From assembly GCA_005116745.1 (NCBI GenBank), contig SWDS01000002.1, positions 104,652 through 168,651 on the forward strand: DNA of 64,000 bases, given 5' to 3'. The notes beneath the pieces were generated by a model. The model was not told the origin of the DNA. It saw nothing but the letters and a program-made list of their open reading frames with translations, and did not search any database. This stretch comes from Nitrospira sp. GTDB lineage: Bacteria; Nitrospirota; Nitrospiria; Nitrospirales; Nitrospiraceae. The position numbers were made by a program, and so were the translations under genes. This document shows positions 45,331-56,000 of the stretch, one piece after another (within the stretch, counting starts at the first letter, position 1; each line of letters opens with the position of its first letter).

Positions 45331-47025
45331 TCACATATGTGCGACCTGCCGCCCGCGAATCTGTACGGACGCCCTGCTTGCATCGGAGAGCAGCCAGTCC
45401 GCAGCGTCCGCCAGCGAGGATGCCACCCAAGCTGGAGCTGGTCCTGAGGCTTTGAGTCTTTCTGCGTCCTGCGGAGACACGACACCCGTCGTCACTAAGA
45501 TACTGCGCACCCCGACCCGCTGTGCCAATTCGATGTCTCGACTGTGATCGCCGATCAGATAAGAGTGATCGAGGGTCACCCCGCATTCTCGCACCGCTTG
45601 GTCAATCATCCCACGGTTCGGTTTTCGACATTCGCACCCGTCGTCAGGATGGTGAGGACAGAAATAGATCGCGTCGAGTGTCACACCCGCGCCATCGAGC
45701 AGACGCTTCAGTTTCATGTGCACGGCATCGAGATCCTTGCGCGACAAGAGTCCTCGCGCGATTCCCGATTGATTGGTGACGACGATCAATCGGGCACCAG
45801 CCCGCTTCAGACGCGCGAGCGCCTCGGACACCCCAGGGAACAACTCAAACTGATCGGGAGACTTGATATAGCCGGAATCAGGATTGAGCGTTCCGTCTCG
45901 ATCGAGAAAGATGGTGTAGCCGGACAGAATGTTCGTCTGGTCTGTGTTGTCTGGACGAGAGAGACCAGATACACGAGACAAACCGCTCAGCTGTTGCACG
46001 GCCACTTCATACACCCGGTCAACGGGGATGCGCGTCATGCAGCGGTGATCAATCGGGCATTCCCTAAGGAGGCAAGGCGCACAGTCGACGGTTTCCCGCA
46101 CAATCGACCGGTCTTGCCCATAGGGTGCGGTGGTCTGTGAATCCGTAGGACCAAACACCGCCACGACCGGCACACCGCACGCCGCAGCGATATGCATCGG
46201 CCCTGTATCGTTGGTAATGAGTAGGCGGCATCGCTTGACCACCGCCATCAACTCACGAATGGTCGTGGCACCCGACAGCACCACTGATCGCCCATTGATT
46301 CGAGCGGCGATGTCCTTTCCCAAGGACTCCTCTCCCCGTGCCCCCAGAATGACCACGACCACCTGTGCATTCTCGTCCTGCCCTATGCGTTCCGCAAGTC
46401 GCTGCGCGACTTCAGCGAATCTCTCAGGTAACCAACGCTTTGCACTTCCGTAGGTCGACCCTGGATTAATGCCAATCACGATATCTGACAAGCCGACCTC
46501 GGCCCCAGCGAGCCTGACATCCAACTGACGACTCTCGTCTGCTGTCACACATAGCGTCGGCGACGATGCAGCGCCAGACAGCCCTAAAGGCTTCAACAGG
46601 TTCCAATAGTACTCGACTTGATGGCCCCTACGACTCGGCACCGCAACAGGCGTAGTCAGAAAAAAGACTCGTCCATCAGTGGCATAGCCATATCGCTGCG
46701 GAATACCCGCAAGCCACGCGAGAAATGCTGCCTCGAAAGCGTTCTGAAAGAGCACTGCCAGATCGAAGCCATGCCGCCGCAACGTACCCGCCAGCAACCA
46801 TTTTCCAGAAAGTCCCGCATGAGGCCCCTTGTCATCGTACAGCACGACTCGACTCAGCTCTGGAGCCGCACTGAACAGTTCGGCGACGGCTCGTTTGGCA
46901 AGCATCGTGATCTCGGCTTCCGGGAACAGTGACCGCAGCCCATGAATAGCCGGCTCGCACATCACGGCATCACCGATCCAATTCGGCGCCCGCACCAATA
47001 TGTTCCGGGGCAGATCCTTACGCAC
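45331..47025 (-). CDS. waaF: WaaF heptosyltransferase fused to GmhB heptose-bisphosphate phosphatase
   Basis: 564 aa fusion. Residues 1-345: family 9 heptosyltransferase II (ILVRAPNWIGDAVMCEPAIH; LITNDTGPMHIAAACGVPVV; FGPTDSQTTAPYG). After a Ser-rich linker, residues 370-530 are a HAD phosphatase: YTIFLDRDGTLNPDSGYIKS (catalytic DxD), VVTNQSGIARGLL, the zinc loop CPHHPDDGCECRKP, and LIGDHSRDIELAQRVG. That loop is diagnostic of GmhB, which dephosphorylates heptose 1,7-bisphosphate. One protein would thus make a heptose precursor and add heptose to the core. A GTG start at 47025 has GGAG five bases upstream, 8 bp inside lpxK. Confidence 0.94.
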   Translation of the reverse strand: MRKDLPRNILVRAPNWIGDAVMCEPAIHGLRSLFPEAEITMLAKRAVAELFSAAPELSRVVLYDDKGPHAGLSGKWLLAGTLRRHGFDLAVLFQNAFEAAFLAWLAGIPQRYGYATDGRVFFLTTPVAVPSRRGHQVEYYWNLLKPLGLSGAASSPTLCVTADESRQLDVRLAGAEVGLSDIVIGINPGSTYGSAKRWLPERFAEVAQRLAERIGQDENAQVVVVILGARGEESLGKDIAARINGRSVVLSGATTIRELMAVVKRCRLLITNDTGPMHIAAACGVPVVAVFGPTDSQTTAPYGQDRSIVRETVDCAPCLLRECPIDHRCMTRIPVDRVYEVAVQQLSGLSRVSGLSRPDNTDQTNILSGYTIFLDRDGTLNPDSGYIKSPDQFELFPGVSEALARLKRAGARLIVVTNQSGIARGLLSRKDLDAVHMKLKRLLDGAGVTLDAIYFCPHHPDDGCECRKPNRGMIDQAVRECGVTLDHSYLIGDHSRDIELAQRVGVRSILVTTGVVSPQDAERLKASGPAPAWVASSLADAADWLLSDASRASVQIRGRQVAHM

Positions 47026-48109
47026 GAGCTCCCAACCGTTGTATCCCGTCGGATGACGGTCCCTCGATCAATCGCTGCAGCTGGTCTTTTCCGCGTACCA
47101 CTTCAGTCCCAAGCCGAAGCATCCACCAGGGGTCGCTGGGCTGGAGAAAGGGGGACAGTTTTCCACCATCCTTCTCAGTCGTCAAGACCATCTCACTCCC
47201 ATTGGCCTGCACAGTGGCACGGATCTGTCTGATCTCATCGTCACTGTAGCGATGATGATCCTCAAAGGCGGTTTCACCAAGGATCTCTATTCCAATCGAT
47301 TCAGCTGATCGGCGGAATGAGTGGCTATTTCCGATCCCGCTCACCAGCCAAGCCTTTTTCTTTCGGCCCCAGCCAACCGATTGTTGCCCCCCCGAAACAA
47401 CCGCCATAAAGGACTCCGGTCGAAACACAACTTCAATGGCGTCCTCAGATAGGCAGACAACCGCTCGCAATCGGCTGTGAATCTCTTCCACATCCTGACG
47501 TGAATCGGCGCGGGTAATCATGACGGCACTCGCTCGATCTAATCCAGTCAGTGGTTCCCGTAGCCGTCCCGCAGGAAGCAGCGCATCCAGTCCTGCAGCA
47601 TCGGTGGCATCCAGTAGCACCAGATCGACATCACGATGGAGCGACCGATGCTGAAAGCCATCATCGAGCACAATGCAGTCGACGGGATACCGTTCCAACA
47701 CCCACCGGCCAAGCGCAACTCGATCAGACCCCACGGCGACAATGGCACGTGGGCAACGCTGCGCCATGAGAAATGGCTCATCCCCGGCCTCCGCTGGACC
47801 GGCCAACATTCGTGATCCATCGGACACCAATAGATAGGACACCGTGCTCGTCCGTTTGTACCCGCGGCTCAAGATCGCCACCCGTTTCCCCTTGGCCACC
47901 AGCCATTCCGTCAGGAGAATGACGATCGGAGTTTTTCCCGTCCCCCCGACTGTCAGATTACCGACACTCACGACCCAACAGGGTAGCCGTGTGGTCGTGA
48001 GCCAACCCTGGCGGTAGCACCACAGCCGACACCGAATGATGAGGCCGTACAACCCAGCAACCCAGTACAGCCCTTTGCGAACTGGTTGTCCAGGAAGCAA
48101 AAACGCCAT
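47018..48109 (-). CDS. lpxK: Tetraacyldisaccharide 4'-kinase
   Basis: 363 aa inner-membrane kinase that adds the 4'-phosphate to lipid A disaccharide. SVGNLTVGGTGKTPIVILL is the LpxK Walker A; VAILSRGYKRTS and DCIVLDDGFQHRSLHRDVDL are the next family motifs. The ATG at 48109 is preferred: it sits one base after the waaA stop (TGACATG) and gives the usual MAFLLPGQPVRKGLYW start. A longer frame from 48298 would overlap waaA by 188 bp. Confidence 0.95.
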   Translation of the reverse strand: MAFLLPGQPVRKGLYWVAGLYGLIIRCRLWCYRQGWLTTTRLPCWVVSVGNLTVGGTGKTPIVILLTEWLVAKGKRVAILSRGYKRTSTVSYLLVSDGSRMLAGPAEAGDEPFLMAQRCPRAIVAVGSDRVALGRWVLERYPVDCIVLDDGFQHRSLHRDVDLVLLDATDAAGLDALLPAGRLREPLTGLDRASAVMITRADSRQDVEEIHSRLRAVVCLSEDAIEVVFRPESFMAVVSGGQQSVGWGRKKKAWLVSGIGNSHSFRRSAESIGIEILGETAFEDHHRYSDDEIRQIRATVQANGSEMVLTTEKDGGKLSPFLQPSDPWWMLRLGTEVVRGKDQLQRLIEGPSSDGIQRLGARA

Positions 48110-48110
48110 G

Positions 48111-49448
48111 TCAGTGTTTGGCCACAAGCGGTCCCGGCTCCGTTGCCACACACGAGTCGGAATACGACGGAGCCGCACGGAGGCAAGTCTCAATGAACTC
48201 CAGACTCCGTGTGAGCGCGCCTTGATTATCCAACACCACCTGTCTTGCAGCCTGCCCCATCCGATGTCGAGTGTCAGGCTGACCAAGCCATTCCTCAAGA
48301 GAGGTAACGAGGTCCTCCACTCCCATCACGCGGCGACCTCCTCCAGCCTCTGATAGAAGTGCCGCGACCTCGGCGCAATGATCCGTATGAGGCCCAAACA
48401 TGACGGGGATACCCCATGCAGCCGGTTCCAACAAATTGTGCCCCCCCACGGGAACCAGAGTTCCACCGACGAATGCCACGGCAGCGTCTCGATATGCGCG
48501 AGACAACTCTCCTCTCGTATCCAAAATGATCACGCGCGGGCCAGATTGCGTCCCCTGAATCCGACTCCTCCGCTGCACGGCAAATCCGGCTTCTCGCAGC
48601 ACGGCTTCGACTCGATCCGCTCGCTCGATATGGCGTGGCGCCAGCATCAACACGGTTGTGGGATAGGTCTTCACGATATGTCGGTAGGCCGACACCAGCA
48701 GTTCCTCTTCTCCAGCGTGCGTGCTACCCGCGAGCATCAATTGTTCATGCTCATCGAGCCCAAAGCTCTGACGGAGCGATTCATGCGAGCGAACGTCCGG
48801 GAGAGGCTGATCAAACTTGATATTACTAGTCACATGAACGCGTGACGGCTCAGCGCCTAACGCAACAATACGCTGTCGATCTCTATCAGATTGCATGAGA
48901 CAGAGTGTGAGCGTTTGAAGTATAGATCGATACAAAGAGCGAATCACGGGCAAGTCCTGACGGCCAAATGACCGCGACGACAACCGCCCGTTTACCAACA
49001 CCGAGGGCACATCCTGTGCTCGTAACGTCCACAATAAGTTCGGCCATAACTCCGTCTCGACAAACACATACAGCACCGGCCGCAGACTGCGGATCATCCG
49101 AGCCACAGCCCAGGGAAAGTCAAGCGGAGCATACCGGTGCTCGGCAATACCGCCTAAGCGCTGTTCTACCGCCTCTCGGCCGGTTTCAGTCACCGTCGTG
49201 ACAATATACCGACACTCAGGATGACGTTCGTGCAACGCCTTCACCAACGGCGTCGCGGCCACAACCTCACCGAGAGACACCGCGTGAATCCACACAAGCG
49301 GCGACGCTGTCGTGTGGCGATCGGAAGGATGAATGTGCCAACCCATCCGCTGAAAAAAACCAGGGCGGCAGCGGGGTTTGGCCAGCAGCACAGCAATAAT
49401 CACTGGGGCAGCAAGAAGAAGACCGATGTTATAGAGCAGCTTCCACAT
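48111..49448 (-). CDS. waaA: 3-deoxy-D-manno-octulosonic acid (Kdo) transferase
   Basis: 445 aa. The N-terminus MWKLLYNIGLLLAAPVIIAV is a membrane anchor; VWIHAVSLGEVVAATPLVKA is the Glu-containing Kdo transferase motif and VFVETELWPNLLWTLRAQDV the second family signature. GGHNLLEPAAWGIPVMFGPH near the C-terminus is also diagnostic. The enzyme adds Kdo from CMP-Kdo to lipid IVA at the inner membrane. The ATG at 49448 fits the family start; a TTG at 49475 would add nine residues. Confidence 0.95.
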   Translation of the reverse strand: MWKLLYNIGLLLAAPVIIAVLLAKPRCRPGFFQRMGWHIHPSDRHTTASPLVWIHAVSLGEVVAATPLVKALHERHPECRYIVTTVTETGREAVEQRLGGIAEHRYAPLDFPWAVARMIRSLRPVLYVFVETELWPNLLWTLRAQDVPSVLVNGRLSSRSFGRQDLPVIRSLYRSILQTLTLCLMQSDRDRQRIVALGAEPSRVHVTSNIKFDQPLPDVRSHESLRQSFGLDEHEQLMLAGSTHAGEEELLVSAYRHIVKTYPTTVLMLAPRHIERADRVEAVLREAGFAVQRRSRIQGTQSGPRVIILDTRGELSRAYRDAAVAFVGGTLVPVGGHNLLEPAAWGIPVMFGPHTDHCAEVAALLSEAGGGRRVMGVEDLVTSLEEWLGQPDTRHRMGQAARQVVLDNQGALTRSLEFIETCLRAAPSYSDSCVATEPGPLVAKH

Positions 49449-49568
49449 GAGAACGAAGTGAACCGTACGAGGCAAAAGGTGAGACGCCCTGTTTAATGCC
49501 TGCGCCTCTTACATCTCATGCCTTACCTTTTACACCCACATCATTTTCTGCCTGATCCGTCAACTGAT

Positions 49569-50192
49569 TCAACACGGTCTCAAGTTCCACCCGAGCTGTT
49601 TCGAGCGCCGCCTCATCGGCCTCACGTGAGACCCAGAGCGGACGTCCGTAGCAAAAGACACCGGTCGAAAACGGATAGGGGACCATGTAGAGGTCCCAGC
49701 TCGCAAAGAGTTTTTTTTTGAGCAGGCAAAGGCTATTGGCACGATCGGAAGTCCCGAGGCTTTCGCCAGCTGGATCACCCCCAGCTTGGCAACGTGACGC
49801 GGCCCTTTCGGGCCATCCGGCGTCACCGCAACATCTTGGCCGGATCGAGCTAATTTAATCAATGCGCGTAGGGCATTGGCCCCGCCGCGCGTACTGGATC
49901 CACGCACGGCCCCATGACCGAATCGAGTGATGATACGCGCAATAATCTCTCCATCCCCATGCTGGCTGATCAACACATGGGCACCCGGTCCTCGGTACCC
50001 GAACGGAATCATCAATTGCTGTGCATGCCAAAATGCGGTAATGGCGTGCCCTCCTTCACGATACAAGGCATCGACCGCTTCCTGTCCTCTCGTCTCGTAG
50101 CGCATCGTGCGGGCAATACCACGAATCAGTGCCGCTCCCACCGGAGGCAGCACAGAAAGCTTCAGCCATCTGACCAAAAACGATTTCTTCAT
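49569..50192 (-). CDS. DUF374-type lysophospholipid acyltransferase family protein, 3' end frameshifted
   Basis: Resembles the LPLAT-like DUF374 proteins found with lpxB/msbA/waaA; possibly a lipid A acyltransferase. ALIRGIARTMRYETRGQEAV, GHAITAFWHAQQLMIP (H-x4-Q region) and VTPDGPKGPRHVAKLGV are the expected order. From residue 158 the frame departs into unrelated residues. An A9 run (minus strand, 49711-49719) precedes the break: one extra A restores ...SKKKLFASWDLYMVPYPF, a normal DUF374 C-terminus, which runs on to a TGA at 49516. The intact protein would be about 225 aa; as written it is 207 aa. Confidence 0.85.
   Translation of the reverse strand: MKKSFLVRWLKLSVLPPVGAALIRGIARTMRYETRGQEAVDALYREGGHAITAFWHAQQLMIPFGYRGPGAHVLISQHGDGEIIARIITRFGHGAVRGSSTRGGANALRALIKLARSGQDVAVTPDGPKGPRHVAKLGVIQLAKASGLPIVPIAFACSKKNSLRAGTSTWSPIRFRPVSFATDVRSGSHVRPMRRRSKQLGWNLRPC
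49711..49719 (-). other. A9 homopolymer at the frameshift site
   Basis: Nine adenines (minus strand) separate the two reading frames of the DUF374 gene. With ten, the conserved C-terminus is read through. It could be a sequencing error, a phase-variable tract, or a site of transcriptional slippage; the sequence alone cannot tell. Confidence 0.85.
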
Positions 50193-50196
50193 AGAA

Positions 50197-51945
50197 TCAA
50201 TGCGCCAATTCTTCGGATTGAAACTGCAACGTGTGCAAACGGTGATAGCTTCCTCCCTGCCGAAGCAGATCCTCGTGCGAGCCTACTTCAACGATCGTCC
50301 CACCGTCCAAGACCACAATGCGATCCGCATTTTGAATGGTCGACAGCCGATGAGCAATCACCAACGTCGTTCGATTCTTCATTAAGTTCGTCAAGGCCAA
50401 CTGCACGATCCGTTCAGACTCCGTATCCAACGCCGACGTCGCTTCATCCAGGATCAGCAATGGCGGGTCGCGAAGCAGCGCGCGGGCGATGGCCAGGCGC
50501 TGGCGCTCGCCCCCCGAAAGCTTAAGCCCTCGTTCTCCGATGAGGGCATCATACCCGTCCGGGATCCGAAGAATGAAGTCATGCGCATAGGCCAGTTTGG
50601 CCGCCTGTTCAACCTCAGCCTGACTGGCCCCTGTTCGTCCAAAAGCAATGTTGTTCCGGATGGTATCATCGAACAGCACAATCTCTTGCGACACGATCCC
50701 GATATGAGCGCGTAATGACTGTAACTCGTACGAGTCAAGCGGAACACCGTCGATCACAATACGGCCTGTAGTCGGCTCATAGAACCGCGGCAACAAACTG
50801 ACTAACGTGGTCTTTCCACTTCCACTGCTCCCGACAAGCGCAATCACTTCCCCGGGCGTGATGGTGAGATCAACTTTGGTCAGCGCGGGAATCTTCTGGC
50901 CCTCATATCGCAAGGAGACACCCTGAAATTCAATGGCACGGTGGATTCCAGCCAACGGGACCATCCCCTGGGTCTGTGCCTGTTCCGTCTTCATGTCCAA
51001 CACATCAAAGACGCGTTCAGCCGCAGCCAGGGCTTGCTGGATCAGATTGTTGGCCCCAGACAACTTCCGCACTGGGGTATAGGCCAATAACATGGCAGCC
51101 ATGAACGAAAAAAACGCACCGGGCGTCATCGTCCCGTTGATGACGAGATAGCCGCCATACCAAATAATGACCGCAATACTGATCACGCCAATGACTTCCA
51201 TATGCGAATGGCCGATCGACCAGACCTGATTCGTTTTCAAGGTGGTGGCCAGAAAGGCCTGGTTTCGCGCTTGAAATCGCTCGGCTTCTGCGTCTTCACG
51301 ACCGAAGGCCTTCACGACCCTGATGCCGGCAAACGTTTCTTGGAGTGTTGACGACATATCGCCCATCTGGGCTTGTCCACTCGCCGCCAATTTCTTCAAC
51401 CGCTTCCCCACGCGAACCATCGTCAGCCCCGCAAGCGGAATCACGATCAGCGAGATGCCCGCCAATTTCCAGTCCTGATAGAGAATCACACCGACCATCG
51501 CCAGAAATGTCAGAACATTTTGAAACATGTCTTTGACGACACTTGACGCCGCATTCGCCATCAACCCAACATCGTTCACGATCCGCGACACCAAACGACC
51601 CGACGTGTTGGAGTCGTGAAATCCGATCGGCATGCGCATGAGCTGCTGAAACAACTCTTGTCGAATGTCTGCCACCACTCGATTCCCCACATACGCCATC
51701 AGGTACCCGACCCCATAGCTGAAGAGGGCCTTCACTGCCGCAACGGCCAATATCGCCAACGGCAAGACCATCAGCAACTGTTCATTTTTTTCGATGAAGA
51801 TCCCGTCGAGCACTGGACGTGCTAACCAGGCATACACCCCGGTCAAGATTGCCACCATCCCGGAGCAGGCGAACCCACCCAAAAACCTCGCCCGATACGG
51901 GCGGACATACCGCATGAGTCGCTTAAATCGTTCTAGGCCTGACAT
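50197..51945 (-). CDS. msbA: Lipid A export ABC transporter, permease/ATPase
   Basis: 582 aa half-transporter: six membrane helices (residues about 20-310) and an ATPase domain with EVIALVGSSGSGKTTLVSLL (Walker A), LSGGERQRLAIARALLRDPP (signature) and LLILDEATSALDTESERIV (Walker B). The length and genomic neighbourhood (lpxB, waaA, lpxK) identify it as MsbA, which flips core-lipid A across the inner membrane as a homodimer. It overlaps the lpxB 3' end by 13 bp and is followed four bases later by the DUF374 gene. Confidence 0.95.
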   Translation of the reverse strand: MSGLERFKRLMRYVRPYRARFLGGFACSGMVAILTGVYAWLARPVLDGIFIEKNEQLLMVLPLAILAVAAVKALFSYGVGYLMAYVGNRVVADIRQELFQQLMRMPIGFHDSNTSGRLVSRIVNDVGLMANAASSVVKDMFQNVLTFLAMVGVILYQDWKLAGISLIVIPLAGLTMVRVGKRLKKLAASGQAQMGDMSSTLQETFAGIRVVKAFGREDAEAERFQARNQAFLATTLKTNQVWSIGHSHMEVIGVISIAVIIWYGGYLVINGTMTPGAFFSFMAAMLLAYTPVRKLSGANNLIQQALAAAERVFDVLDMKTEQAQTQGMVPLAGIHRAIEFQGVSLRYEGQKIPALTKVDLTITPGEVIALVGSSGSGKTTLVSLLPRFYEPTTGRIVIDGVPLDSYELQSLRAHIGIVSQEIVLFDDTIRNNIAFGRTGASQAEVEQAAKLAYAHDFILRIPDGYDALIGERGLKLSGGERQRLAIARALLRDPPLLILDEATSALDTESERIVQLALTNLMKNRTTLVIAHRLSTIQNADRIVVLDGGTIVEVGSHEDLLRQGGSYHRLHTLQFQSEELAH

Positions 51946-53063
51946 GCCGTCAACACCAGTTCTGCCGCTCGAACAGACGCGCCTGGTTCACCCAACGCGT
52001 CTCGTACTTGTGCCAAGCTCCGCTTCATTTCTGCATAGGCTGCGGGATCTTCCAAGATCCGCAGCGCCTCCTCGTAAAGACGCTGACCGGTAGCCTCATC
52101 CTGCAACAACTCCGGCACGACGGATCGACCTGCCACCAAATTCACCAGTCCAATCCATTTGACCCGGAGAAAGAAACTCGCGATCCAATATTCCAATTCT
52201 GATGTTCGATAGATCAACACCATAGGCGTGCCCACGACGGCGGCTTGCAGCGTGGCTGTCCCCGACGCCACCAGCACCACATCGGATACGGCCATCACTT
52301 CACTGGCTTGTTCTTTGACCAGAGTGACAGGAACCGAACTGTGCCGCAAGAGTGGCTGCAGCAGATTATCCTGAATTGTGGAGGCCTGCGCCAAGATAAA
52401 CTTTGTTTTTGGCGCCTGGTGAGCCAATTGCTCTGCGGCCCTGATCAGGATCGGCAACAGAGCCTGTACCTCATGTACGCGACTCCCCGGCAACAAGCCA
52501 ATCACCCGCTCATCCTGAGCGAAGCCAAATCTGCTGCGCAGCGCCGTCCGATCGTAGGATCCTTCGACTGCATCCAGGATGGGATGGCCGACAAATGTGC
52601 AGCGCATACCCGCGCTGTCATAGAGAGGCTTTTCAAAAGGCAGAATGACCAACACCTGATCAACTCGTTTCTTGATCCAGTACATCCGCCAGGCCCCCCA
52701 GGCCCAAATCTGCGGCGCAACATAATAGAACACGCGCAACCCAGCGCCCTTGGCGAAGTAGGCGTACCGTAAGTTTAATCCGGGGTTATCGACAAAGATG
52801 ACCGCATCCCATGGTTCGGACCGAAACAACCGTCGCATGAAGAAAAACCGTCGCATGATCGCCACCAACACCAAGGGCCCGACCATCCCCATCACATCGA
52901 ACTGCCCCATCTTGCAGACCAATTGCACACCGGCCGCCTCCATCGCTGCCCCTCCGATCCCGGCAAGCGAGACCTGAGGGTCCTTGGCTCTGAGCGCCTT
53001 GGCCAGATTAGCTCCGTGGAGGTCGCCGGAGGCTTCACCAGTAATGATCAGGATACGCGGCAT
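51933..53063 (-). CDS. lpxB: Lipid A disaccharide synthase
   Basis: 376 aa GT-B (family 19) enzyme. It opens PRILIITGEASGDLHGANLA, the LpxB signature, then GIGGAAMEAAGVQLVCKMGQ and YYVAPQIWAWGAWRMYWIKK; VASGTATLQAAVVGTPMVLI is the donor-binding region. It joins UDP-2,3-diacylglucosamine to lipid X. It is transcribed upstream of msbA with a 13-bp overlap and 85 bp after the Gfo/Idh gene. Confidence 0.96.
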   Translation of the reverse strand: MPRILIITGEASGDLHGANLAKALRAKDPQVSLAGIGGAAMEAAGVQLVCKMGQFDVMGMVGPLVLVAIMRRFFFMRRLFRSEPWDAVIFVDNPGLNLRYAYFAKGAGLRVFYYVAPQIWAWGAWRMYWIKKRVDQVLVILPFEKPLYDSAGMRCTFVGHPILDAVEGSYDRTALRSRFGFAQDERVIGLLPGSRVHEVQALLPILIRAAEQLAHQAPKTKFILAQASTIQDNLLQPLLRHSSVPVTLVKEQASEVMAVSDVVLVASGTATLQAAVVGTPMVLIYRTSELEYWIASFFLRVKWIGLVNLVAGRSVVPELLQDEATGQRLYEEALRILEDPAAYAEMKRSLAQVRDALGEPGASVRAAELVLTACQA

Positions 53064-54200: not shown

Positions 54201-55055
54201 TCAGGCCGCTGGGCTCGGCTCCTCTTCACGAGCAAGGCCAACGACGGCGATGCCGGCTTCCTCCGCAGTGCGGAGGAGCACTTCTCGATCCAGCATCACG
54301 CATCGACCAGCCTCAACGGCCAGCACCGACGCCTTGACGGATTGCATGACCTCGATCGTCCTGGGACCCACGGCCGGCAGGTCAAACCGGAGATCCTGCT
54401 GCGGTTTGCTCCGCTTCACCACAACCGCACCATCCTTAGCCAGCTCGCCGCCACGCTTGATCGCTTCATCGGTCCCTTCGACCGCTTCGACTGCCACGAC
54501 GACACGGTCTTTAATCACAACGCATTGGCCGATGTCGAGGCGCCCCGTCTCTTTAGCCACGTCCCAGCCATAACGGATGTCCACCCACTCCTTCTTAGTT
54601 GGTTGACGCGACGTGAGCGTCCCTTCCTCAACCAAGATCCCTTCCAGACCGAACGTCGACTCGCAAATGGTGATGCCATCCTTCTCGAGTTCTGCAGCAA
54701 GTGCGCGTAGAATATCGTCATCCTTCCAGAGGGCCAATTTCGTGGCGAGCGCGAGCACTCGAAAATCAGGACGGGCATGGCTATAGACATGCGTTTTCTT
54801 GATGCCCCCCAGCATGACCACATTCCGGACGCCGTCGGCCTTGAACGCATTGATCAACTTGTTGAGCTGGCCAATCTTGACCCAATGGATCCGATCGACA
54901 TGCTGTTCGAGCTCCGGTTCAGTCTCGCCCTCATGAGCCACCGCATAGACTTGAAGGCCCATTTTGCGAGCGTTATCCGCAAAGATGATCGGAAATCGTC
55001 CGTTCCCGGCGATCACCCCGATTCGACCGTCTGCTATAGACATGGCCAAGGTCAT
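54201..55055 (-). CDS. lpxI: UDP-2,3-diacylglucosamine pyrophosphatase (LpxI)
   Basis: 284 aa. GRIGVIAGNGRFPIIFADNA opens the LpxI (DUF1009) family; GVRNVVMLGGIKKTHVYSHA, TICESTFGLEGILVEEGTLT and CVVIKDRVVVAVEAVEGTDE follow in canonical order, and LPAVGPRTIEVMQSVKA is near the end. LpxI releases UMP to give lipid X and replaces LpxH in many non-gamma bacteria. The ATG at 55055 (MTLAMSIADG) is chosen; 55043 is an alternative and a TTG at 55085 would overlap lpxA. It follows lpxA by 13 bp. Confidence 0.94.
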   Translation of the reverse strand: MTLAMSIADGRIGVIAGNGRFPIIFADNARKMGLQVYAVAHEGETEPELEQHVDRIHWVKIGQLNKLINAFKADGVRNVVMLGGIKKTHVYSHARPDFRVLALATKLALWKDDDILRALAAELEKDGITICESTFGLEGILVEEGTLTSRQPTKKEWVDIRYGWDVAKETGRLDIGQCVVIKDRVVVAVEAVEGTDEAIKRGGELAKDGAVVVKRSKPQQDLRFDLPAVGPRTIEVMQSVKASVLAVEAGRCVMLDREVLLRTAEEAGIAVVGLAREEEPSPAA

Positions 55056-55068
55056 AGTGGCTGAGAGC

Positions 55069-55887
55069 TCACACCGGTTGATCAAACTCGCGCTCTAGGT
55101 CATGGTTGACAGCCCTTGAGATGCCACGTTTGGTTCCCTCCATAAACGTGAGGACCTTGGCCACATCCGCCTGTCCTTTAAATTCCTTTTTTGCCAATCG
55201 TACCGCCTCGGCTGTCCGATGTCCCGATCGGAACAGCAAGTCAAATGCCTTCTTCAACAAAGCGATCCGGTCCACCGAGAAACCATGCCGTTGCAAACCG
55301 ACCGAATTGAGGCCGTACAGATGTGCGCGATACCCGCCGGCTGCAAATGCAAACGGAGGGATATCCTGGCCGATCGCACAACACCCTCCGATCATCACAT
55401 AGTCTCCGATACGCACAAACTGAAGAACACCGGTCAAGCCTCCGATAACCGCATGATCACCGATGGTAATATGTCCCGCCAGGCTTGCCGCATTCGCCAT
55501 AATGATATGGTCACCGAGCCGGCAATCATGCGCCACATGCACGTAGGCCATCAGAATGCCCTTGGATCCAAGAGAGGTCACGCCCCCTCCCTGGGTCGTT
55601 CCCCGATTGATCGTGACATATTCGCGGATGATGTTGTCATGGCCGATGACGACTTTAGTCGGTTCCCCTTTATAGCCAAGGTGCTGTGGAGGCCCTCCGA
55701 TCGAAGCAAACGGATGCACTTCATTCCGCTCCCCAATTTCCGTCCACCCATCGATAATCGCATGGGAAAGAAGTCGGCTCCCCTTTCCGATCACGACGTG
55801 CTCTCCCACAACGCAGAACGGCCCAATTTCCACGTTATGATCGAGGCTCGCCTTGGGATGAATGATCGCTGTTGGATGTATCTTCAC
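55069..55887 (-). CDS. lpxA: UDP-N-acetylglucosamine acyltransferase
   Basis: 272 aa left-handed beta-helix enzyme starting VKIHPTAIIHPKASLDHNVE with hexapeptide repeats; LMAYVHVAHDCRLGDHIIMA contains the catalytic His. It transfers the first fatty acyl chain to the 3-position of UDP-GlcNAc. The start is a GTG at 55887 with GGGGG five bases upstream; a TTG at 55911 would add eight residues and has no ribosome site. It is preceded by fabZ (113 bp) and followed by lpxI. Confidence 0.95.
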   Translation of the reverse strand: MKIHPTAIIHPKASLDHNVEIGPFCVVGEHVVIGKGSRLLSHAIIDGWTEIGERNEVHPFASIGGPPQHLGYKGEPTKVVIGHDNIIREYVTINRGTTQGGGVTSLGSKGILMAYVHVAHDCRLGDHIIMANAASLAGHITIGDHAVIGGLTGVLQFVRIGDYVMIGGCCAIGQDIPPFAFAAGGYRAHLYGLNSVGLQRHGFSVDRIALLKKAFDLLFRSGHRTAEAVRLAKKEFKGQADVAKVLTFMEGTKRGISRAVNHDLEREFDQPV

Positions 55888-56000
55888 GCATGCCCCCTTT
55901 ACTCGCGTCAAACCTCACCGGCCATTCGTCAACTGCCGGATCACTGCCTGGCCTACACGCCGACCGTACGCTTCAGGAATCGAGTACTCATCAAACCCGA

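What the first reader, a model, noticed from the sequence alone, without database searches (positions are those of the whole stretch)
49516..50192. A9 frameshift in a DUF374 acyltransferase of the lipid A cluster
One extra A in the A9 run restores a conserved C-terminus (FASWDLYMVPYPF and on) ending at 49516. The conserved codons after the break are intact, so the shift is recent, an assembly error, or compensated by slippage or phase variation. A switch in lipid A or phospholipid acylation would be of interest.
Basis: seen in the sequence. Interest (0 to 1): 0.6.

Follow-up and report, generated by a model that had tools for sequence, protein, structure and literature searches.

The report
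Conserved slippage site in lipid-A acyltransferase
A gene for a lipid-A (outer membrane) enzyme looks broken by a missing letter in a run of nine A's, but the same "broken" run is kept at the same spot across most of the bacterial phylum Nitrospirota, so the cell most likely relies on a molecular slip at this run to make the working enzyme.

Summary
The A9 run (49711-49719, minus strand) puts a PF04028/DUF374 (LpxJ-like) acyltransferase out of frame, and one added A restores the C-terminus.

The state is ancient and conserved. Of 158 Nitrospirota DUF374 loci read, 146 (about 40 genera, several class-level groups, closed genomes included) have A9 or A10 at the same codons, out of frame in the same direction; ten are in frame. 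Of 74 usable in-frame homologues from other phyla, none has the tract.

The TCA-AAA-AAA-AAA codons show zero synonymous changes on the tree, against a mean of 13 at other two-fold sites. This is the only A/T run of 9 or more inside a coding sequence in the genome.

The zero-frame product ends before the Trp-Asp pair whose equivalents are essential in Rickettsia LpxJ. No LpxL/LpxM gene (PF03279) was found in this genome.

Best explanation: programmed slippage, more likely by RNA polymerase (A9 to A10) than by -1 ribosomal frameshifting, yields the full-length enzyme. The kind of mechanism is known (Thermus dnaX, Citrobacter tssM). I found no earlier report of this gene, though supplements and subscription papers could not be searched. 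No transcript or protein evidence was available.

The parts
49569..50192 (-). Zero-frame ORF, 207 aa: N-terminal about 160 aa of the DUF374/LpxJ-like acyltransferase plus about 47 aa of out-of-frame tail
49711..49719 (-). A9 slippery tract, read TCA AAA AAA AAC in the zero frame and TCA AAA AAA AAA CTC after one added A or a -1 shift
   Evidence: conserved in 146 of 158 loci; zero synonymous changes on the tree
49516..49710 (-). C-terminal part of the enzyme in the -1 frame (LFASWDLYMVPYPF...KGKA, stop TGA 49518-49516)
   Evidence: conserved in relatives
49693..49698 (-). Codons for the invariant Trp-Asp of the SWD motif, only reachable after the frame change
   Evidence: W165 and D166 invariant in 53 sequences; equivalents essential in R. 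typhi LpxJ (PMC6148475)
49679..49697 (-). Candidate hairpin GGGACC-TCTACAT-GGTCCC, 13 nt 3' of the tract; function uncertain
50197..51945 (-). msbA (upstream neighbour)
   Evidence: TIGR02203 above cut-off
48111..49448 (-). waaA/kdtA, Kdo transferase (downstream neighbour; likely ATG at 49448)
   Evidence: PRK05749 family, E 2.8e-119; start codon read
51933..53063 (-). lpxB
   Evidence: TIGR00215 above cut-off
47018..48298 (-). lpxK
   Evidence: TIGR00682 above cut-off
55069..55911 (-). lpxA
   Evidence: TIGR01852 above cut-off
54201..55085 (-). lpxI-like UDP-2,3-diacylglucosamine diphosphatase
   Evidence: NF047836, E 3.9e-42, below its cut-off

Best explanation
The gene encodes an LpxJ-like (DUF374) acyltransferase whose full-length form is made only by programmed slippage at the A9 run. 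Most likely RNA polymerase slips on the run and makes a mixed pool of mRNAs. Those with ten A's (or seven) are translated into the full 225-residue (or 224-residue) enzyme. The templated nine-A mRNA gives a 207-residue product lacking the last beta strand, the C-terminal helix and the Trp-Asp motif, predicted to be inactive. The tract thus holds the amount of the only candidate late lipid-A acyltransferase found in this genome to a fixed fraction of its transcripts. Shown: the out-of-frame tract, its conservation, purifying selection on it, and loss of family-essential residues in the unslipped product. Inferred: that slippage happens in the cell, that it is transcriptional, the product ratio, and acylation of lipid A.
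For: Conservation: 146 of 158 Nitrospirota loci have A9/A10 out of frame in the same direction, and an exact A9-N12-TGGGAY pattern occurs in 139 of 396 phylum genomes with none for the reversed control. Selection: AAA at all three Lys codons in every shifted row aligned, although AAG is 63% of Lys codons elsewhere in the f1 genes; 0 third-base changes on the tree against mean 13, minimum 5. Length is kept at 9 or more while the codon phase of the run differs (f10 and f13 start it on a codon boundary). Genome-wide there are 3 A/T runs of 9 or more, two being terminator-like tails, against about 42 expected. In-frame genes nested within shifted clades restore the same protein by other sequences (SQKTLF, SHKHVF, A10), so the fused protein is the functional one. 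Model pLDDT 94 with a PlsC/PatA/LpxM fold; the tract follows strand 150-157, ahead of strand 176-181 and helix 193-217. W172A and D173A abolish R. typhi LpxJ activity (PMC6148475). No PF03279 gene in this genome. Nine A's is the length at which many genomes select against slippage-prone runs, and a conserved run in homologues is read as purposeful slippage (PMC1088944).
Against: No RNA or protein data. The zero frame contains A_AAA_AAA and A_AAA_AAC (A_AAA_AAG in some relatives), all possible -1 ribosomal heptamers. A hairpin 13 nt downstream has more pairs than random synonymous codons give, which would fit ribosomal frameshifting. The shift direction is the same in nearly all genomes, which PMC3711429 takes as a sign of ribosomal frameshifting (one MAG, L107, has the other direction). 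Lipid A acylation by this protein is untested.
Confidence: 0.72

Rival explanations
1. Programmed -1 ribosomal frameshifting: ribosomes slip back one base on A_AAA_AAA or A_AAA_AAC, helped by a downstream hairpin, making the same full-length protein.
For: Slippery heptamers are present in the zero frame. GGGAYC-N7-GGTCCC stems are complete in 70 of 97 f1 genes, against 34 expected with random synonymous codons, and in 18 of 41 when one gene per genus is taken, against 9; 5 of 74 in-frame outgroup genes. The direction of shift is conserved.
Against: In the window's family A8 and A9 lie outside the A1-A7 heptamer yet never change, including the free third base of the last Lys codon. The codon phase of the run varies while its length stays 9 or more. 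The spacer to the hairpin is 12-13 nt, the stem is incomplete in genus g14 and several f4 genera, and consensus folding finds no downstream stem shared by the f1 genera. A tRNA-Lys(CUU) exists beside tRNA-Lys(UUU), a situation linked to RNA-polymerase slippage in Thermus (PMC5009743).
Confidence: 0.2
2. Assembly error or recent inactivating mutation in this one genome.
For: Homopolymers are error-prone and the genome is in 32 contigs.
Against: The same out-of-frame run in 146 of 158 loci, from independent and closed single-contig assemblies.
Confidence: 0.01
3. Phase variation: run length changes by replication slippage and turns the enzyme on and off in sub-populations.
For: Homopolymers of nine can mutate; one relative (G226) has an in-frame A10.
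Against: If lengths drifted, in-frame and out-of-frame states would be mixed between species; instead the out-of-frame state is almost universal, and most in-frame exceptions broke up the run.
Confidence: 0.04
4. Split enzyme or a functional truncated protein: the two frames are translated separately, or the short product is the useful one.
For: The zero-frame ORF upstream of the tract is intact in the shifted genes.
Against: 93 of 149 genes have no start codon in the -1 frame upstream of the tract, and the zero-frame stop lies 6 to 268 nt after the tract without a conserved place. The short product lacks residues essential in an LpxJ homologue (PMC6148475).
Confidence: 0.03

Closest known systems
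Thermus thermophilus dnaX (transcriptional slippage on A9)
   Same: A cellular gene with a run of nine A's read by a slipping RNA polymerase, giving two products (PMC1088944, PMC5009743)
   Different: In dnaX the full-length protein is in the zero frame and both products work; here full length needs the slip and the short product is probably inactive
Citrobacter rodentium tssM1 (A11 transcriptional frameshifting)
   Same: Interrupted ORF restored by added A's; long and short forms from one gene (PMC4256274)
   Different: Secretion gene with A11; here a core lipid-A biosynthesis gene, A9, conserved over much of a phylum
GeneTack cluster 'Tetraacyldisaccharide kinase /acyltransferase'
   Same: A frame transition involving an acyltransferase named together with the lipid-A kinase (PMC3711429)
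   Different: The name points to a transition between an lpxK gene and an acyltransferase gene, with frameshifting and translational coupling both possible; not an internal A9 in DUF374. Its supplement could not be read
LpxJ / DUF374 late acyltransferases (Rickettsia, Helicobacter, Campylobacter)
   Same: Same Pfam family, same conserved WH, D, PDGP and WD residues (PMC6148475)
   Different: Homologues examined outside Nitrospirota are single uninterrupted ORFs without the tract

Membership tests
Programmed transcriptional realignment (slippage) genes | A/T run of about 9 or more inside the coding sequence at the frame transition | tested here: met
   A9 here, A9 or A10 in 146 of 158 loci
Programmed transcriptional realignment (slippage) genes | Run conserved in homologues under purifying selection | tested here: met
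   0 synonymous changes against mean 13 at other two-fold sites
Programmed transcriptional realignment (slippage) genes | mRNA of mixed run length | not testable with these tools
   No reads or cDNA available
Programmed -1 ribosomal frameshifting genes | X_XXY_YYZ heptamer in the zero frame | tested here: met
   A_AAA_AAA and A_AAA_AAC within TCA AAA AAA AAC
Programmed -1 ribosomal frameshifting genes | Conserved stimulator (hairpin at short spacing or SD-like element) | tested here: inconclusive
   Hairpin enriched in f1 but 13 nt away and not universal; SD-like elements were not scanned for
DUF374 / LpxJ acyltransferase | PF04028 match | tested here: met
   E 5e-29, 100.1 bits against cut-off 26.8
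DUF374 / LpxJ acyltransferase | WH, D, PDGP and WD residues essential in R. typhi LpxJ | tested here: met
   W55, H56, D80, D126, W165, D166 present and invariant in 53 sequences; W165 and D166 only in the slipped frame; correspondence to R. typhi numbering is by motif
DUF374 / LpxJ acyltransferase | LPLAT-type fold | tested here: met
   Model matches PlsC 5kym, PatA 5f2z, LpxM 5knk
DUF374 / LpxJ acyltransferase | Transfers an acyl chain to lipid A | not testable with these tools
   Inferred from family and cluster only

The most novel reading that the evidence does not exclude
A phylum-wide regulatory device: slippage at the A9/A10 run in LpxJ sets, and perhaps tunes with growth conditions (nucleotide pools, RNA-polymerase pausing), the ratio of active to inactive late acyltransferase and so the acylation of lipid A. 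Two layers, polymerase slippage and a hairpin-aided ribosomal shift, may act at one site.
Probability: 0.25. Interest if true: 0.8.

Novelty: new member of a known kind. Interest (0 to 1): 0.62.

Why it matters
Nitrospirota include the main nitrite-oxidising and comammox bacteria (own knowledge). If right, the full-length product of their lipid-A late acyltransferase depends on slippage that is normally treated as an error, and automatic annotation would call the gene a pseudogene or truncated. Conservation of an out-of-frame homopolymer over much of a phylum in a core envelope gene is a strong natural case for programmed slippage outside mobile elements and secretion systems, and it can be tested by sequencing one cDNA.

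Tried and rejected
Sequencing error or recent mutation: rejected by 146 of 158 loci. Split gene or internal start: no conserved start codon. Selected short C-terminal tail: zero-frame stop position not conserved. Conserved stimulator structure: consensus folding of 22 f1 genera found none downstream; a specific hairpin is enriched but not universal and 13 nt away, kept as a lead. Spread outside the phylum: among 80 genome-contig loci only Nitrospirota-labelled records and L233 (titled Deltaproteobacteria UBA1386) are shifted; L233's true affiliation was not resolved. Single origin: the deepest branches are unresolved, so one origin is likely but not shown. Literature: no paper found naming this gene or a Nitrospira slippage gene; supplements and most subscription papers could not be searched.

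Full report
WHAT IS THERE. On the minus strand the gene starts at 50192 and runs GCC TGC TCA AAA AAA AAC TCT .. through an A9 run at 49719-49711. The zero frame ends at 49569 after 207 residues. The family C-terminus (LFASWDLYMVPYPF..) lies in the -1 frame and ends at 49516. The protein is PF04028 (DUF374; E 5e-29). The gene sits between msbA and waaA in a cluster with lpxA, an lpxI-like gene, lpxB, lpxK and a heptosyltransferase gene.

IT IS NOT AN ERROR. In the genus search, 75 of 79 genomes hold the gene. All 30 whose DNA came with that search have exactly A9. I read 158 loci across the phylum. 146 need the same one-A change. Ten are in frame: one in the window's genus (L033), the four of family-level group f3, G202, G226, two of group f12 and one of f26. 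One (L107) is shifted in the other direction. One (L019) has an upstream N and is ambiguous. Shifted genes occur in f1 (22 genus codes; 21 hold the gene), f2, f4, the class-level groups f5 and f6, and the more distant f9, f10, f13 and f20. Closed single-contig genomes show it too. A direct pattern search (A9, 12 bases, TGGGAY) found 139 of 396 phylum genomes, and no genome for the reversed control. Of 80 loci from across bacteria, 74 usable in-frame homologues lack the tract; the shifted ones are records titled Nitrospirae, Nitrospiria, Nitrospirales or Nitrospira, plus L233, titled Deltaproteobacteria UBA1386.

IT IS UNDER SELECTION. In the 94 aligned f1 genes the codons are TCA (89 of 94) and AAA, AAA, AAA (94 of 94); the 47 others also have AAA at all three Lys codons. 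Outside the tract, AAG is 361 of 569 Lys codons and TCA about 7% of Ser codons in the same f1 genes (counts with the tract taken out). On the tree, third bases of these four codons change 0 times, against a mean of 13 and a minimum of 5 at 13 other two-fold sites. The genome holds only three A/T runs of nine or more. Two are tails of terminator-like hairpins; the third is this one. Scaling the shuffled window (0.70 per 64 kb) gives about 42 expected. Homopolymer lengths mutate easily, so the near-absence of in-frame A10 suggests that the out-of-frame state itself is favoured. This last step is inference.

THE FULL-LENGTH PROTEIN IS THE FUNCTIONAL ONE. In-frame genes nested within shifted clades (L033, L118, L145, the f3 clade) restore the same protein by different sequences. 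The AlphaFold2 model of the full protein has mean pLDDT 94 and resembles PlsC, PatA and LpxM. It was read with two Lys instead of three, by a code allowed by the tool. The tract follows strand 150-157; strand 176-181, helix 193-217 and the invariant Trp-Asp come after it. Alanine changes of W172 or D173 abolish R. typhi LpxJ (PMC6148475); these correspond by motif and spacing to the Trp-Asp here (my mapping). So the 207-residue product should be inactive. No PF03279 (LpxL/LpxM) gene was found in this 99.96% complete genome, so this is its only candidate late acyltransferase among the families tested.

WHICH SLIP. For RNA polymerase: the run is always nine or more, its codon phase varies between groups, bases outside a ribosomal heptamer never change, nine is the length at which many bacteria avoid runs (PMC1088944), one relative has the opposite direction, and tRNA-Lys(CUU) exists beside tRNA-Lys(UUU) (compare PMC5009743). 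For the ribosome: heptamers exist, direction is nearly constant (a criterion of PMC3711429), and a GGGAYC-N7-GGTCCC hairpin 13 nt downstream has more pairs than random synonymous codons give (18 of 41 genera against 9). I put about 3 to 1 on RNA polymerase. Both give the same protein. The efficiency is unknown; known cases give about 20-25% (tssM, A11) to 50% (dnaX).

WHAT IS KNOWN. Programmed slippage is known in dnaX, IS elements, type III and type VI secretion genes (PMC1088944, PMC5009743, PMC4256274). I found no mention of DUF374/LpxJ or a Nitrospira enzyme as a slippage gene in the papers held. The nearest is a GeneTack cluster named for lpxK and an acyltransferase, which seems to be a different transition (PMC3711429). 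I file it as a new member of a known kind, unusual in breadth and in being a core envelope enzyme.

LIMITS. Deep branches of the tree are weak. Related sequences are not independent, so the synonymous tests were also made on a tree and the hairpin test also with one gene per genus. No RNA, protein or lipid data were available.

Noticed in passing
window 45331-47025 (-): One ORF holds both a heptosyltransferase II (residues 8-342) and a GmhB-type heptose bisphosphate phosphatase (371-547), an apparent fusion.
   Followed up: no
L107 (G194), tract at about 1207 of the gene-strand sequence: A10 followed by one T fewer than in the close relative L115: out of frame in the opposite direction to all others. 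Either a MAG error or a real case of changed slip direction.
   Followed up: partly
L233: A shifted A9 DUF374 gene in a record titled Deltaproteobacteria bacterium UBA1386: either a mislabelled Nitrospirota-like genome or a second lineage with the feature.
   Followed up: partly
L244 (G039) and L245 (G011): Two relatives of the same genus carry strong LpxL-like PF03279 genes (E 2e-59 and 9e-49) that the window's genome lacks.
   Followed up: no
window 49679-49697 (-): GGGACC-N7-GGTCCC hairpin 13 nt after the tract, enriched beyond random synonymous codon choice in the family; purpose unclear.
   Followed up: partly
whole genome G000: Only three A/T runs of nine or more in 3.86 Mb, two of them terminator-like tails (L242, L243), a strong depletion.
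   Followed up: yes
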